This document shows positions 52,577 to 57,001 of a stretch of DNA of 60,265 nt, one piece after another; the stretch's first letter is position 1, and each line of letters opens with the position of its first letter. The DNA comes from Winogradskyella sp. Its GTDB lineage: Bacteria; Bacteroidota; Bacteroidia; Flavobacteriales; Flavobacteriaceae. The stretch is taken from assembly GCA_013002225.1 (NCBI GenBank), contig JABDKL010000063.1, positions 1 to 60,265 on the forward strand. Direction: 5' to 3'. A program made the translations under genes and the position numbers. The notes under the pieces were generated by a model. That model was given only the letters and a program-made list of their open reading frames with translations, searched no databases and was not told the origin of the DNA.

Positions 52577-55027
52577 TTAATCAATCTTAAAGGCTTGTTC
52601 TTTAATACGCTGTATACGCTTGTCTAAATTCTCATTACTCATAGTGCCTCTTAGGCTATCAACTTTTAAAGGAAAACTCAAAGGAGTAAATGATTTTGCT
52701 CGTTTTAAAATAATTTTACTTTTAGAAATACGATCAAAGGCAGATTGCAACCTTGCTTCTTCTAACTGTTGATTAAAGACTTCAGTATAGGCCTGACGCA
52801 ACAATAAATTTTCTGGTTCATAGTCTTCTAAAACTCTAAATATTAGCCCTGATGAAGATTGCAAACTTTTATTATTTTTTCGTGTACCTGGTTGTGACTG
52901 CACAACTAATCCTGAAATTACAGCTATATCTCTAAATTTTCGTGATGCCATTTCAGAGGCATTTATACTCGCAATCACATCATCCATTAAGTTATCCTTA
53001 CTTAAAAGTTCTTTTATGTTGTCTTCTGTGACAGGAATTGGTTGATCACTTAACAATTCAAATCCATAATCATTCATCGCAATAGTAAAAGTCAGCGGTT
53101 TTAATTTACTTATACGATACGCCATTAGTGCAGAAAACACCTCATGTACCAACCTTCCTTCAAAAGGATACATAAACAAATGCTGGCCATCCCTGGTTTC
53201 AATCAGCTCTACTAAAAACTCATTTGATTTTGGTATGTGAGAGTGTTTGTCTTGTCTGGAAATCAACGGATTTAAAAACCGAAGCTCTTTTTCTAATCGA
53301 CCAGGTTGCAATGCATCGGACAATTTTAATCGCATAAAATGACTTAAATGCGACGTTAAGGGCAAACGACCACCAAGCCAACTCGGTGTTACCGCCTTTT
53401 TTGCTTTACTTCTGCGTACCAGTACTTGCATATCTTTAATATGAACTAATTCTAAAACACGTCCGGCTAAAATAAAACTGTCTCCAGGTTTTAATTTTGA
53501 AATAAAAAATTCTTCAATCATACCAATATAACCACCAGAAAAGAATTTAACCATCAACATAACCTCACTAACAATTGCACCTATATTCATACGATGTAGC
53601 ATGCTAATGCGACGGCTTTTTACTTTATAAAGACCATCTTCATCTTTTACGACCTTATGAAACTCTTCATAAGAATGTAACGTTTTTCCACCTTTGGTTA
53701 TAAAATGAAGACACCACTGCCAATCATCTTCAGTAATATATTGAAATGCATGGGTTTCTTTAATTTGATTATATAATTGAGTAGAATCAAATCCCATCCC
53801 AACAGCATTTGTCACCATAAACTGCACCAATACATCATAGGTTAACACCATCGGGTCTCTGGTTTCAATTTGCTGTTGTTTTACAGCCTCTTTTAAAGCA
53901 GAAACTTCCACCAATTCTAACGAATGTGTAGGAATAAAGTATATTTTAGAACGTTCATAAGGGGAATGACCACTACGCCCAGCACGTTGCATAAATCGTG
54001 CAATGCCCTTTGCAGAACCAATTTGAATGACACAATCTACAGGTTTGAAATCAACACCTAAATCGAGAGAGGATGTACAAACTACCGCTTTTAAATAGCC
54101 ATTAGATATACTATCCTCAATCCAATTCCGTAATTTTTTATCAATCGACCCATGATGAATGGCCAGTAATCCTGCCAGTTCTGGATTTGCAGTGAGTAGG
54201 AGTTGATACCATAGTTCTGATTGACCACGTGTATTTGTAAAAATTAATGTGGTGGTATTATTTTCAATAATAGGAAGAATTTTATCGACCATTTTAGCTC
54301 CCAAATGACCAGCCCATGGCAATACTTCAATTTCGTTTGGCAAAACCGAAATGATATCTATCTTCTTTTTTTGTTTCGCTTTAATTTGGGTGATTTTTAA
54401 ATCTGAATATGGTAACAATACCTTCTTTGCTTCTTCTAAATTACCAATAGTTGCCGTTATTCCCCAAATTCTGAGTTGAGGTGCATAATGTCTTAGCTGA
54501 GAAATTGCCAGTTCAGTAAGTACACCTCTTTTATTTCCTAAAAGCTCGTGCCACTCATCTATAGCCACACATTTTAAATTTTTAAACCATCTCGAGTTCT
54601 TTTTTTGAGAAAACAACAAGTGCATGGTTTCTGGAGTGGTAAGTAAAACATCTGGCATTAGCCGTTCTTGCTTTCGTCTTACCGATGTTGGTGTATCACC
54701 ATTTCGTACTTGTACAGACCAATCTAGACCAATTTCTTCTACAGCCGTTGTCATTGCCTTTGCCAAATCTTTTGCTAATGATCGCAAAGGGCTAATCCAT
54801 AATAATTTTAAGCCTTTTGGATACCTTTCAGGATGATTTAAATAATCTACAACAACAGCAAGAAAGACTGAAAACGTTTTTCCGAATCCCGTTGGCGCTA
54901 CAACCATACCACTATAACCATTAGAATAGCGTTGCCAGGTTTGCGTCTGAAATGGAAAAGGCGCCTGACCTTTTTCTGCCATCCAATTGTTTATAATACG
55001 TAAGCCTTCACTTTCTTTAAAATTCAT
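52577..55027 (-). CDS. ligase-associated DNA damage response DEXH box helicase (Lhr-like)
   Basis: An 816-residue superfamily 2 helicase with Walker A PTGFGKT (45-51), TPETMHLL, the DEWH box (157-160), SAKGIARFMQRAGRSGHS (motif VI) and the Lhr-type C-terminal domains. It unwinds DNA or RNA-DNA duplexes and moves 3' to 5' by analogy with Lhr. The frame is open to 55084, but residues from there (IPKRVRNDRH) are translation of the palindromic repeat at 55033-55058; the ATG at 55027, just outside the repeat, is the credible start. A mobile-looking unit therefore supplies everything upstream of this gene's start codon. Confidence 0.92.
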   Translation of the reverse strand: MNFKESEGLRIINNWMAEKGQAPFPFQTQTWQRYSNGYSGMVVAPTGFGKTFSVFLAVVVDYLNHPERYPKGLKLLWISPLRSLAKDLAKAMTTAVEEIGLDWSVQVRNGDTPTSVRRKQERLMPDVLLTTPETMHLLFSQKKNSRWFKNLKCVAIDEWHELLGNKRGVLTELAISQLRHYAPQLRIWGITATIGNLEEAKKVLLPYSDLKITQIKAKQKKKIDIISVLPNEIEVLPWAGHLGAKMVDKILPIIENNTTTLIFTNTRGQSELWYQLLLTANPELAGLLAIHHGSIDKKLRNWIEDSISNGYLKAVVCTSSLDLGVDFKPVDCVIQIGSAKGIARFMQRAGRSGHSPYERSKIYFIPTHSLELVEVSALKEAVKQQQIETRDPMVLTYDVLVQFMVTNAVGMGFDSTQLYNQIKETHAFQYITEDDWQWCLHFITKGGKTLHSYEEFHKVVKDEDGLYKVKSRRISMLHRMNIGAIVSEVMLMVKFFSGGYIGMIEEFFISKLKPGDSFILAGRVLELVHIKDMQVLVRRSKAKKAVTPSWLGGRLPLTSHLSHFMRLKLSDALQPGRLEKELRFLNPLISRQDKHSHIPKSNEFLVELIETRDGQHLFMYPFEGRLVHEVFSALMAYRISKLKPLTFTIAMNDYGFELLSDQPIPVTEDNIKELLSKDNLMDDVIASINASEMASRKFRDIAVISGLVVQSQPGTRKNNKSLQSSSGLIFRVLEDYEPENLLLRQAYTEVFNQQLEEARLQSAFDRISKSKIILKRAKSFTPLSFPLKVDSLRGTMSNENLDKRIQRIKEQAFKID

Positions 55028-55032
55028 ATGTC

Positions 55033-55058
55033 TGTCATTCCGAACTCGTTTCGGAATC
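55033..55058 (+). repeat. palindromic repeat, left copy (inverted partner at 55397-55422)
   Basis: TGTC, then ATTCCGAA, loop CTCGT, TTCGGAAT, then C. The stem is 8 bp and perfect. TGTC faces outwards, away from the GIY-YIG gene. The right copy aligns over the whole length with compensatory changes in the stem. Confidence 0.8.
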
Positions 55059-55070
55059 AAATTATTAATA

Positions 55071-55382
55071 TTAGATGCTATCACGGTTCAAAGATTTCCA
55101 TAAATTGTTCCAGTTTGGATTATCCTTTTCTATAAGGTTTATTTTCCATTGACGATGCCAATTTTTTAATTGTTTTTCTCTTTTTATAGCATCTTCAACA
55201 AACTGAAATTCTTCAAAATACACTAGCTTCTTCAATTTGTACTTTGACACAAACTTACTGCCTTCTTCATTTAAATGACGTTCCATTCTATCATCTAAAC
55301 CACCTGTTACACCAATGTAAAGTGTTCCTTTTTGCCTATTAGAGAGAATGTATACCCAATAATTATGATATGCTCGTTTCAT
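55071..55382 (-). CDS. small GIY-YIG nuclease family protein
   Basis: A 103-residue stand-alone GIY-YIG domain: WVYILSNR (9-16), LYIGVTGGL (21-29), catalytic-type Arg32 in DDRMERH with His36, YKLKKLVYFEEF, and Glu63 in VEDAIKREKQLKNW, the metal-binding Glu. All catalytic positions are present, so it is probably an active nuclease. Proteins like this (UPF0213/YhbQ-like) have no settled role; homing endonucleases and UvrC share the domain. It stands inside the DNA ligase operon on the same strand, enclosed by two inverted hairpin repeats. I infer that the nuclease acts on, or moves, those repeats. Confidence 0.88.
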   Translation of the reverse strand: MKRAYHNYWVYILSNRQKGTLYIGVTGGLDDRMERHLNEEGSKFVSKYKLKKLVYFEEFQFVEDAIKREKQLKNWHRQWKINLIEKDNPNWNNLWKSLNRDSI

Positions 55383-55396
55383 TTAAATTTTTATGA

Positions 55397-55422
55397 GATG
55401 CTGAAACCAGTTCAGCATGACA
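55397..55422 (-). repeat. palindromic repeat, right copy
   Basis: Read on the minus strand: TGTC, ATGCTGAA, loop CTGGT, TTCAGCAT, C. Same length, stem size (8 bp) and loop size (5) as the left copy; the differing stem bases change on both sides so pairing is kept. The TGA in CATGCTGAAC is the ligase stop codon. Confidence 0.8.
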
Positions 55423-57001
55423 AAATAAGGGATTTCACGGTTTCTAAAGTATCGATTTCTGAGGCTGGTTTATCTTTTCTCCATCTGGCAATTCTGGGAA
55501 ATCGTAAAGCTACGCCAGATTTGTGTCTTTTGCTAAAGGCAATACCTTCAAAAGCAATTTCGAAAACGAGCTCTGGTTTTACGGTACGTACAGGTCCAAA
55601 TTTTTCAATGGCATTTTTATTTACCCAACGTGAGATTTCAGTAATTTCTTTGTCTGTTAATCCCGAATAGGCTTTAGCAACAGTAACCAATCCATCATCT
55701 TTTTTAACAGCAAATGTATAATCTGTGTATTTTGAACTACGCCGACCACTACCTTTCTGCGCATAAATCATAACGGCATCGATAGTTAATGGGTCTACCT
55801 TCCACTTCCACCAATCCCCTTTTTTACGACCTGTATGATATGGTGATGCTTTTTGTTTTAGCATTAATCCTTCACTATTTATAGCTCTGGAATTATCTCG
55901 TATCGCATTAAGCGCTTCCCACTTATTAAATTTTACGATAAATGAAAGTTTTATATGTTCTGGTAATGAAATTGAATTGAAAAGGTTTTCTAAAGTTTGT
56001 CGTCTTGTAGCGAATGGTAAACTTCTAATATCATTACCATTAAATTCTAGTATATCATAAGCATAAAACCCAATAGGCACTTCTTCGAGCAGTTTTTTAT
56101 TTACATTTTTTCGATTCAATCGTTTTTGTAAATCATTAAAAAGTAAAACCGCATTGTCTTTCATAGCCAATATTTCGCCATCTATGACAAAGTCTTCCTT
56201 AAAATTCGTCATGGCTTCTACCAATTCTGGAAATTGCTTTGTCACCAACTCTTCGCCTCGAGACCATATGTAAATTTCATTATTTCGCTTAACGATTTGC
56301 CCTCTAATACCATCCCACTTTTGCTCTACAATCCAATCGTCAGGATCACCAAGTTCTTGTAATTCTTTCTCTAAAGCATATGCCAGACAAAATGGATAAG
56401 GTTTAGAATTGTCGTAGTTAATGTGTGTGCCTTTTATTAATTCTTCGAAAGAAATAGTATCAATATCCCAATTACCAATGATACTATGCATCAACTGATT
56501 AGCATCGATACCTGTTAATTTTGCTAAGGCGTTAACTAAAGTTTTTTTAGAGACACCTATTCTAAAATTACCTCCAATTAATTTATTGAAAATAAGTCGT
56601 TCTTGCTGTTTTAAACCCGACCATGCCGCAAACACAAATTTCTTTTTCTCTTCATCTGATTTTGGTTTTAGAAGTTTCAATTCGTTCATCCATTCGCTTA
56701 GCGTTAAATCTAATTTATGTGTGGGTTTAGGTAATAATAAGGCAATAGTTTCTCCCAAATCACCAACCGTACTATAGCTTTCTAAAAAAAGCCATTCTGG
56801 CAACTCGGTTTTCTCCATACACCACTGTTTCATTAAAGCTGTTTTGATAGGTCGTGGTGGGCGTTTTCCTGTAAAAAGAGCTATTAACCAAAGTTTATCT
56901 TTGCTAGGTGCTGTTTTAAAATAATTGACCAATGCATCAATCTTTGCGTTGGTTTTGTTGGTAATCTCTATAGCACTGATTAAGTCTGAAAACTGCTTCA
57001 T
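55412..57001 (-). CDS. ATP-dependent DNA ligase (ligase-associated set)
   Basis: A 529-residue ATP-dependent ligase: an N-terminal DNA-binding domain (1-200), the nucleotidyltransferase motif EQKWDGIRG with adenylated Lys228, EDFVIDGEILA, GLMLKQKASPY and WWKWK (motif V), and an OB domain with VELVFEIAFEGI-type wording. It seals nicks using ATP, in a set with an exonuclease, helicase and PdeM. The ATG overlaps the exonuclease stop codon by four bases. The C-terminal three residues and the stop codon fall inside a palindromic repeat, so the original end may have been altered by an insertion. Confidence 0.93.
   Translation of the reverse strand: MKQFSDLISAIEITNKTNAKIDALVNYFKTAPSKDKLWLIALFTGKRPPRPIKTALMKQWCMEKTELPEWLFLESYSTVGDLGETIALLLPKPTHKLDLTLSEWMNELKLLKPKSDEEKKKFVFAAWSGLKQQERLIFNKLIGGNFRIGVSKKTLVNALAKLTGIDANQLMHSIIGNWDIDTISFEELIKGTHINYDNSKPYPFCLAYALEKELQELGDPDDWIVEQKWDGIRGQIVKRNNEIYIWSRGEELVTKQFPELVEAMTNFKEDFVIDGEILAMKDNAVLLFNDLQKRLNRKNVNKKLLEEVPIGFYAYDILEFNGNDIRSLPFATRRQTLENLFNSISLPEHIKLSFIVKFNKWEALNAIRDNSRAINSEGLMLKQKASPYHTGRKKGDWWKWKVDPLTIDAVMIYAQKGSGRRSSKYTDYTFAVKKDDGLVTVAKAYSGLTDKEITEISRWVNKNAIEKFGPVRTVKPELVFEIAFEGIAFSKRHKSGVALRFPRIARWRKDKPASEIDTLETVKSLILSC

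What the first reader, a model, noticed from the sequence alone, without database searches (positions are those of the whole stretch)
55033..55422. GIY-YIG nuclease gene bracketed by inverted palindromic repeats inside the ligase operon
A 103-residue GIY-YIG protein gene is flanked by two 26-bp copies of one repeat in inverted orientation, both with TGTC outermost, an 8-bp perfect stem and a 5-base loop. The stems differ at several bases but always in a compensated way, so pairing is under selection or needed for movement. The unit interrupts a gene set that is usually contiguous. The layout recalls REP/RAYT elements, where a nuclease mobilises short palindromes, but here with a GIY-YIG enzyme. 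I know of no described family of this kind.
Basis: partly seen in the sequence, partly recalled or inferred. Interest (0 to 1): 0.8.

Follow-up and report, generated by a model that had tools for sequence, protein, structure and literature searches.

The report
Palindrome-bracketed GIY-YIG nuclease element
A tiny DNA-cutting enzyme gene sits between two copies of a short hairpin repeat; relatives of the enzyme in other bacteria sit beside matching repeats of their own kind, so it may be the missing partner of a class of repeats reported to have none.

Summary
The window holds a 103-aa GIY-YIG nuclease gene (55071-55382, -) between two inverted 26-bp palindromes with TGTC outermost, at the DNA-ligase/helicase junction. 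Of 30 such junctions examined in the genus, 23 are empty, 4 carry the bracketed gene, 1 a repeat pair without the gene and 2 another insert. Of 101 related GIY-YIG genes, 89 have such a repeat upstream, 75 downstream and 51 outward-facing on both sides; for 256 control ORFs the counts are 12, 16 and 0. Repeat sequence follows the enzyme's clade rather than the host genome. One Erythrobacter genome holds seven long copies of a unit, 92.6-97.5% alike, at different places. The repeats fit the published CGTC/TGTC-tagged REPs, which "apparently lack a dedicated transposase" (Di Nocera 2013, PMC3733652). Best reading: GIY-YIG is the nuclease partner of these REPs and spreads them, working like REP/RAYT but with an unrelated enzyme. 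Association, specificity and multiple copies are shown; cleavage and the route of movement are inferred. Ten literature searches listed no earlier report of the link.

The parts
55397..55422 (-). REP copy upstream of the gene: TGTC tag, 8-bp stem, 5-base loop; supplies the end and stop codon of the ligase reading frame
   Evidence: sequence; ORF end
55071..55382 (-). GIY-YIG nuclease gene, 103 aa; Y11, Y22, G24, R32, H36, E69 invariant in the 50 aligned sequences
   Evidence: AlphaFold model mean pLDDT 88.1
55033..55058 (+). REP copy downstream of the gene, inverted relative to the other copy, TGTC outermost
55412..57001 (-). flanking gene, not part of the element: ATP-dependent DNA ligase (TIGR04120)
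52577..55027 (-). flanking gene, not part of the element: ligase-associated DEXH helicase (TIGR04121), start taken at the first ATG after the repeat
   Evidence: start choice is inference

Best explanation
The unit 55033-55422 is a small mobile element: an outward-facing pair of TGTC/CGTC-type REPs with a gene for a GIY-YIG nuclease between them. The nuclease recognises its own type of REP hairpin and nicks or cuts it, and the lesion is repaired or replicated so that REP pairs, with or without the gene, are copied to new places. SHOWN: frequent bracketing in outward orientation, enzyme-repeat specificity, gene-less pairs, empty sites, near-identical copies of a unit in one genome, conserved catalytic residues, low dN/dS. 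INFERRED: that the protein binds and cuts the REP, and that cutting drives spread. UNKNOWN: the strand-joining step; a GIY-YIG enzyme hydrolyses DNA (recalled), so host repair or replication would have to do the joining.
For: Bracketing: of 101 GIY loci with full flanks, 51 have outward REPs on both sides, against 0 of 256 control ORFs and 0 of 2,020 mononucleotide-shuffled flank pairs. Specificity: REP type changes 12 times on a tree of the GIY proteins (120 typed genes; shuffled mean 31, minimum 27), the CGTC/TGTC tag 3 times (99 genes; shuffled mean 24.5, minimum 15). Paralogs under 60% identity in one genome have different REPs (median core distance 0.47, 35 pairs), while genes of 60% or more in other genomes have similar ones (0.21, 75 pairs). 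Co-occurrence over 149 genera: 43 of 63 genomes with a close GIY gene have 3 or more REPs of one type, against 12 of 86 without. Insertion: 23 of 30 junctions empty; gene-less orthologous sites in Azospirillum and Sphingobium. Multi-copy: seven long copies in one genome, pairwise 92.6-97.5% identical. Catalytic residues invariant in 50; dN/dS 0.05-0.17 over 6 pairs of copies at the ligase site. Nearest solved folds: UPF0213 BH0048, then Slx1, a branched-DNA nuclease.
Against: No cleavage or movement has been observed. 50 of 101 loci are not fully bracketed by my strict motif, and 22 of 101 have inward-facing repeats on both sides. In the PF01541 census only 3 of the 10 genes of this type that were not already in my first set have like palindromes on both sides. 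Ten genomes have 5 or more REPs without a close GIY gene. Gene-less neighbouring repeats are as often tags-in (75) as tags-out (72). No clear target-site duplication was seen: junctions have diverged. The seven Erythrobacter copies share about 20-45 bp outside the REPs, so the moved unit may be larger than REP-gene-REP. The ligase-site copies may simply be inherited within part of one genus, so the unit in the window is not evidently active.
Confidence: 0.7

Rival explanations
1. Homing reading: the REPs came first and are the homing site. The GIY-YIG gene is a free-standing homing endonuclease that cuts REP palindromes and is copied between REP arms by gene conversion, so it ends up bracketed. 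Here the REPs are targets, not the element's own ends.
For: Two places carry one palindrome with tags at both ends exactly where a unit sits in sister copies (Erythrobacter contig C23 and Sphingobium TomTYG64), as an uncut target would look; 2 such two-tag palindromes were found against 251 one-tag ones in the fetched loci. REP-rich genomes without a close GIY gene exist. GIY-YIG is a known homing-endonuclease fold (recalled).
Against: The same two-tag form also results from simple deletion between the two REPs. Repeat type follows enzyme clade even among paralogs in one genome, and gene-less tags-out pairs with a median 26.5-bp spacer look like miniature versions of the unit.
Confidence: 0.2
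2. Housekeeping reading: the protein is a host structure-specific nuclease (Slx1-like) that removes or restrains REP cruciforms; the flanking REPs serve autoregulation, not movement.
For: Fold similarity to UPF0213 and Slx1; low dN/dS at the ligase site.
Against: Presence/absence at orthologous junctions, several paralogs per genome with different REPs, seven long copies in one genome, copies with stops inside or cut short.
Confidence: 0.07
3. Hotspot reading: REPs are insertion hotspots or clusters, and GIY-YIG genes are incidental passengers.
For: In REP-rich loci many repeats lie close together in all orientations.
Against: Other GIY-YIG types lack the arrangement: like palindromes on both sides in 9 of 18 genes of this type (3 of the 10 not already in my first set) but 0 of 20 UPF0213/YhbQ-type, 0 of 10 other small and 0 of 11 large ones; for 9 of the 11 large ones the downstream flank was cut off. 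Ordinary genes with intergenic gaps in the same loci: 0 of 16 bracketed, a small number. Clade-specific repeat types are not expected of a passenger.
Confidence: 0.03

Closest known systems
CGTC-tagged REPs (Di Nocera, De Gregorio, Rocco 2013, PMC3733652; abstract, passages and section 16 read)
   Same: CGTC or TGTC tag at one end, 8-9 bp stem, 4-5 base loop, pairs said to be mostly tags-outside ('HH'); Bacteroidetes, Neisseria (dRS3) and alphaproteobacteria among the hosts
   Different: That paper found no associated transposase gene; here a GIY-YIG gene is the partner. The CCA tail it reports for most repeats is not seen in the window's type.
REP/RAYT 'REPtrons' and REPINs (PMC2817692, PMC3116915: search listing only; REPtrons as described in section 16 of PMC3733652)
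   Same: Nuclease gene flanked by inverted palindromes that also occur without the gene; repeat-specific enzymes
   Different: RAYTs are HUH/tyrosine transposases with GTAG-tagged REPs; here the enzyme is GIY-YIG and the tag CGTC/TGTC, with no strand-transfer chemistry known to me (recalled)
Free-standing GIY-YIG homing endonucleases (recalled)
   Same: Small GIY-YIG nuclease that may spread its own gene
   Different: No intron or intein seen, no conserved coding target; bracketed by palindromes
UPF0213 / YhbQ-type small GIY-YIG proteins, and Slx1
   Same: Nearest solved folds
   Different: UPF0213/YhbQ-type genes had like palindromes on both sides in 0 of 20 loci

Membership tests
CGTC/TGTC-tagged REP superfamily | CGTC (or TGTC) at one end outside the stem | tested here: met
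   Both window copies TGTC; 45 of 48 genes with a tagged repeat on each side have the same tag on both
[quoted passage not shown]
   Window stems 8 bp beginning A-T, T-A; loops 5
CGTC/TGTC-tagged REP superfamily | Unpaired tail fitting CCA (said of most, not all) | tested here: not met
   Window tails CAA and CTC; tails of this type mostly CTNN; tails starting CC occur in other clades
CGTC/TGTC-tagged REP superfamily | Pairs mainly with tags outside | tested here: inconclusive
   Across the gene 38 of 59 nearest pairs are tags-out; among gene-less neighbours 72 tags-out against 75 tags-in
REP/RAYT REPtron | HUH/tyrosine transposase | tested here: not met
   The only Pfam match at E <= 0.001 is PF01541 GIY-YIG
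REP/RAYT REPtron | GTAG tag | tested here: not met
   Tag is TGTC
REP/RAYT REPtron | Enzyme gene flanked by REPs that also occur without it, with enzyme-specific repeat types | tested here: met
GIY-YIG homing endonuclease | GIY-YIG domain with catalytic residues | tested here: met
GIY-YIG homing endonuclease | Cuts the allele that lacks the gene and is copied into it | not testable with these tools
   Needs a biochemical or genetic test; the two-tag palindromes are only a hint
MITE / classical transposon | Target-site duplication | tested here: inconclusive
   Junctions too diverged
UPF0213 / YhbQ | UPF0213-type sequence (KYTRA/KYTRS-like motif, seen) | tested here: not met
   Motif absent from the window protein; the distinction rests on a simple pattern, not on a tree

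The most novel reading that the evidence does not exclude
A phylum-spanning class of minimal mobile elements moved by a roughly 100-residue GIY-YIG nuclease alone. The enzyme cuts its cognate palindrome and lets host replication or repair copy the unit. It generates the CGTC/TGTC REPs of bacteria (including dRS3 of Neisseria) and, through sister clades, several longer GTCA-starting repeats. This would be DNA mobility without any transposase, recombinase or reverse transcriptase of its own.
Probability: 0.5. Interest if true: 0.95.

Novelty: new variant of a known kind. Interest (0 to 1): 0.85.

Why it matters
The 2013 paper that defined CGTC REPs concluded that they apparently lack a dedicated transposase and left their mobiliser open. 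This gives a concrete, testable candidate, with enzyme-repeat pairs from many hosts ready to assay. If right, one of the two REP superfamilies of that paper has a partner unrelated to RAYTs, so palindromic repeats acquired nuclease partners at least twice, and a tiny hydrolytic nuclease may be enough to spread DNA. It would also give a meaning to genes now annotated only as 'GIY-YIG nuclease family protein' or 'excinuclease ABC subunit C' (such names).

Tried and rejected
Rfam search of 54900-55600 gave no match at gathering thresholds. NCBIfam has no match for the 103-aa protein at E <= 0.001. Phage records gave only 2 weak, partial matches, so I dropped a phage origin. I looked for target-site duplications at three loci and could not define the edges; the seven Erythrobacter copies did not settle it. 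I considered the two-tag palindrome as proof of a homing target and rejected that, because deletion between two REPs gives the same product.

Weak controls: the 256 control ORFs include overlapping mechanical ORFs, which under-samples intergenic DNA. A stricter control (non-overlapping ORFs with at least 60 bp of gap on both sides, the 129 direct neighbours of the GIY gene left out) leaves only 16 genes: 2 with a repeat on one side, 2 on the other, 0 bracketed. The other-GIY control types proteins by simple patterns; one UPF0213-type locus (L253) was misplaced among 'other small', and 8 of the 18 genes of our type, 6 of the 9 with like palindromes, were already in my first set. New ones alone: 3 of 10 against 0 of 41 (Fisher 0.006). 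The REP-type labels mis-scored the tag letter, so types ignore the tag; it was tested apart. The locus sample is the best-scoring part: 80 of 147, the 30 loci delivered.

Full report
WHAT IS THERE. The window carries a 103-codon GIY-YIG gene at 55071-55382 on the - strand. It lies between two inverted copies of one palindrome, TGTCATNNNGAACNNGTTTCNNNATC, at 55033-55058 (+) and 55397-55422 (-), with TGTC outermost at both ends. Chance expectation is 0.07 matches per window, and 0 of 100 shuffles reach two. The unit separates the ligase-associated DNA-damage genes: exonuclease TIGR04122 and ligase TIGR04120 on one side, helicase TIGR04121 and PdeM TIGR04123 on the other. The ligase frame ends inside the repeat. 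The own genome (214 contigs) has three GIY-YIG matches; the other two lie in open frames of 610 and 455 aa, and I take the former to be UvrC (inference). The pattern with up to 3 mismatches has 9 matches in the own genome, two of them the window's, against 3 for the reversed control pattern. One further match is exact (C76); two more are of a related type and, read by eye, sit in outward-facing pairs. So the repeat is present elsewhere but in low copy.

THE JUNCTION IN RELATIVES. The ligase C-terminus was found in 31 of 68 genomes of the genus. I examined the 30 delivered as loci. In 23 the helicase frame begins at the ligase stop. In 4 (own, L125, L127, L128) the GIY-YIG gene is there with REPs on both sides. 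In L146 a repeat pair without the gene, one copy decayed, sits at the same place. In L147 and L148 another insert is present. From matching sequences I infer that the genus is Winogradskyella. Between the four gene copies dN/dS is 0.05-0.17 over 6 pairs, with dS 0.8-1.8, near saturation; one copy is cut to 70 codons.

HOW GENERAL IT IS. 104 of 149 genera of the family have a match to the protein at E <= 0.001, often several per genome; weak matches may be other GIY-YIG proteins. From I had 110 loci, the best-scoring part of what was found; 105 are distinct and 101 have 200 bp on both sides. A YGTC palindrome lies upstream in 89, downstream in 75, outward-facing on both sides in 51 and inward-facing on both sides in 22. 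The nearest upstream copy faces outward in 69 of 89, the nearest downstream in 49 of 75. Control ORFs in the same loci: upstream 12, downstream 16, bracketed 0 of 256. Shuffled flanks: bracketed 0 of 2,020. A stricter gene control is small: 0 of 16 bracketed. Hosts with such repeats beside the gene include Bacteroidota, alpha-, beta- and gammaproteobacteria, Ignavibacteriaceae and candidate phyla, the last as metagenome bins. A tblastn of the plasmid collection gave 33 records, among them Sphingobium, Shinella, Sinorhizobium, Rhizobium, Azospirillum, Aeromonas and Neisseria. Of 12 regions fetched, 7 have the nearest pair outward-facing and of one type (L193, L197, L198, L199, L202, L203, L204; L193 and L203 are the same site), for example CGTCACCCCGGGCTTGACCCGGGGT on both sides in Sphingobium. 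L196, L200 and L201 have repeats of one type on both sides in other arrangements. Rhizobium K1/93 (L194) and Planktothrix (L195) have none by this motif.

ENZYME-REPEAT SPECIFICITY. The types need 12 changes, against a shuffled mean of 31 and minimum of 27. The tag letter needs 3 changes (99 genes; 3 with mixed tags left out) against a mean of 24.5. Host relatedness alone does not explain this. Paralogs under 60% identity in one genome have a median repeat-core distance of 0.47 (35 pairs), while genes of 60% or more in other genomes have 0.21 (75 pairs), p 6e-8, with pairs not independent. The Mantel correlation is 0.50, with 0 of 500 permutations reaching it. Stem positions covary strongly (402 sites).

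OTHER GIY-YIG TYPES AS CONTROL. PF01541 searches of 10 genomes and of 39 genomes of one phylum gave 59 loci that I examined; not all matches were fetched, and the 10 genomes were chosen because they hold loci of my first set. Like palindromes on both sides: 9 of 18 genes of this protein type, 0 of 20 UPF0213/YhbQ-type, 0 of 10 other small, 0 of 11 large (for 9 of these the downstream flank was cut off). Eight of the 18 were already in the first set; of the 10 new ones 3 have the arrangement, against 0 of 41 others (Fisher 0.006). Some of the 'other small' genes are flanked by longer repeats that this test does not count.

SIGNS OF MOVEMENT. Across 149 genera, 43 of 63 genomes with a close GIY-YIG gene have 3 or more REPs of one type, against 12 of 86 others (Fisher 1e-11). 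Part of this is the gene's own flanks; at 5 or more REPs it is 38 of 63 against 10 of 86. Ten genomes have 5 or more REPs without a close gene. The genome of Erythrobacter sanguineus (through L097) holds seven long copies of a unit (21 pairs, 92.6-97.5% identical), three with early stops, plus fragments, with unrelated outer flanks. Similarity extends about 20-45 bp beyond the REPs. Azospirillum lipoferum has the gene between sufB and sufC, while three relatives (94.7-96.3% identical in the matched flanks) do not. In Sphingobium the fnrL site is filled in L193 and L208 and lacks the gene in L205, L206, L207 and L209; L205 and L206 hold a single collapsed palindrome. Two palindromes with tags at both ends were found against 251 with one tag, and both lie where a unit sits in sister copies; this may be an empty target or a deletion scar. 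Gene-less tags-out pairs have a median spacer of 26.5 bp (72 pairs); tags-in neighbours are as many (75).

THE PROTEIN. Y11, Y22, G24, R32, H36 and E69 are invariant in 50 aligned sequences, as in active GIY-YIG nucleases (recalled). The AlphaFold model (42 sequences) has mean pLDDT 88.1. The only solved structure with Foldseek E <= 0.001 is UPF0213 BH0048 (1zg2); next come Slx1 chains (E 0.02 and up), a nuclease for branched DNA. This fits, but does not prove, an action on hairpins or cruciforms.

MECHANISM. Most likely the nuclease recognises its own REP and cuts it, and host replication or repair copies the REP pair, with or without the gene, elsewhere. The sequence evidence shows association, specificity and multiple copies. 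Cutting and the joining route are inferred. The main rival is homing into pre-existing REPs.

WHAT IS KNOWN. Di Nocera et al. 2013 (abstract, passages, section 16; [quoted passage not shown] They state that these repeats are not associated with transposase genes; 'giy' does not occur in their main text. Ten paper searches listed no paper whose title or abstract start links GIY-YIG genes to these repeats; three returned no paper at all, others were capped lists. The one paper holding both 'GIY-YIG' and 'repetitive extragenic palindrom' names them apart, in a table and a reference (passages). A 2018 paper on HUH nucleases cites the 2013 paper and has no 'GIY' (passages). The library holds openly licensed PMC papers only, so an unseen report is possible. 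By enzyme and tag the unit is not a RAYT REPtron, although it may work like one.

Noticed in passing
L157, L158, L178, L184, L189, L192 (also L229, L242): Another group of small GIY-YIG genes lies among longer repeats of the kind GTCATTGCGAG...GCAATCT or close variants, so the enzyme-repeat link may extend beyond the short REPs.
   Followed up: partly
L216, L217, L219, L225: A third GIY-YIG type lies beside repeats containing CTTCGAC...CTCAG or close variants.
   Followed up: no
L147, L148: At the same ligase/helicase junction two species of the genus carry a different insert of about 700 bp beginning with a small ORF (MGRQSISFTKPNDEWLKA); I guess a toxin-antitoxin pair.
   Followed up: no
L167, L167b, L172, L186: One well supported GIY-YIG clade has CCTGCG-N-AGGCAGG-like palindromes without the GTC tag, so the tag is not universal.
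   Followed up: partly
L195 (Planktothrix plasmid p1): A GIY-YIG gene of this type lies between a type IIL restriction-modification gene and DISARM drmA.
   Followed up: no
L304 (Erythrobacter contig C23): A single palindrome with CGTC tags at both ends sits between outer flanks that elsewhere enclose the whole unit.
   Followed up: partly
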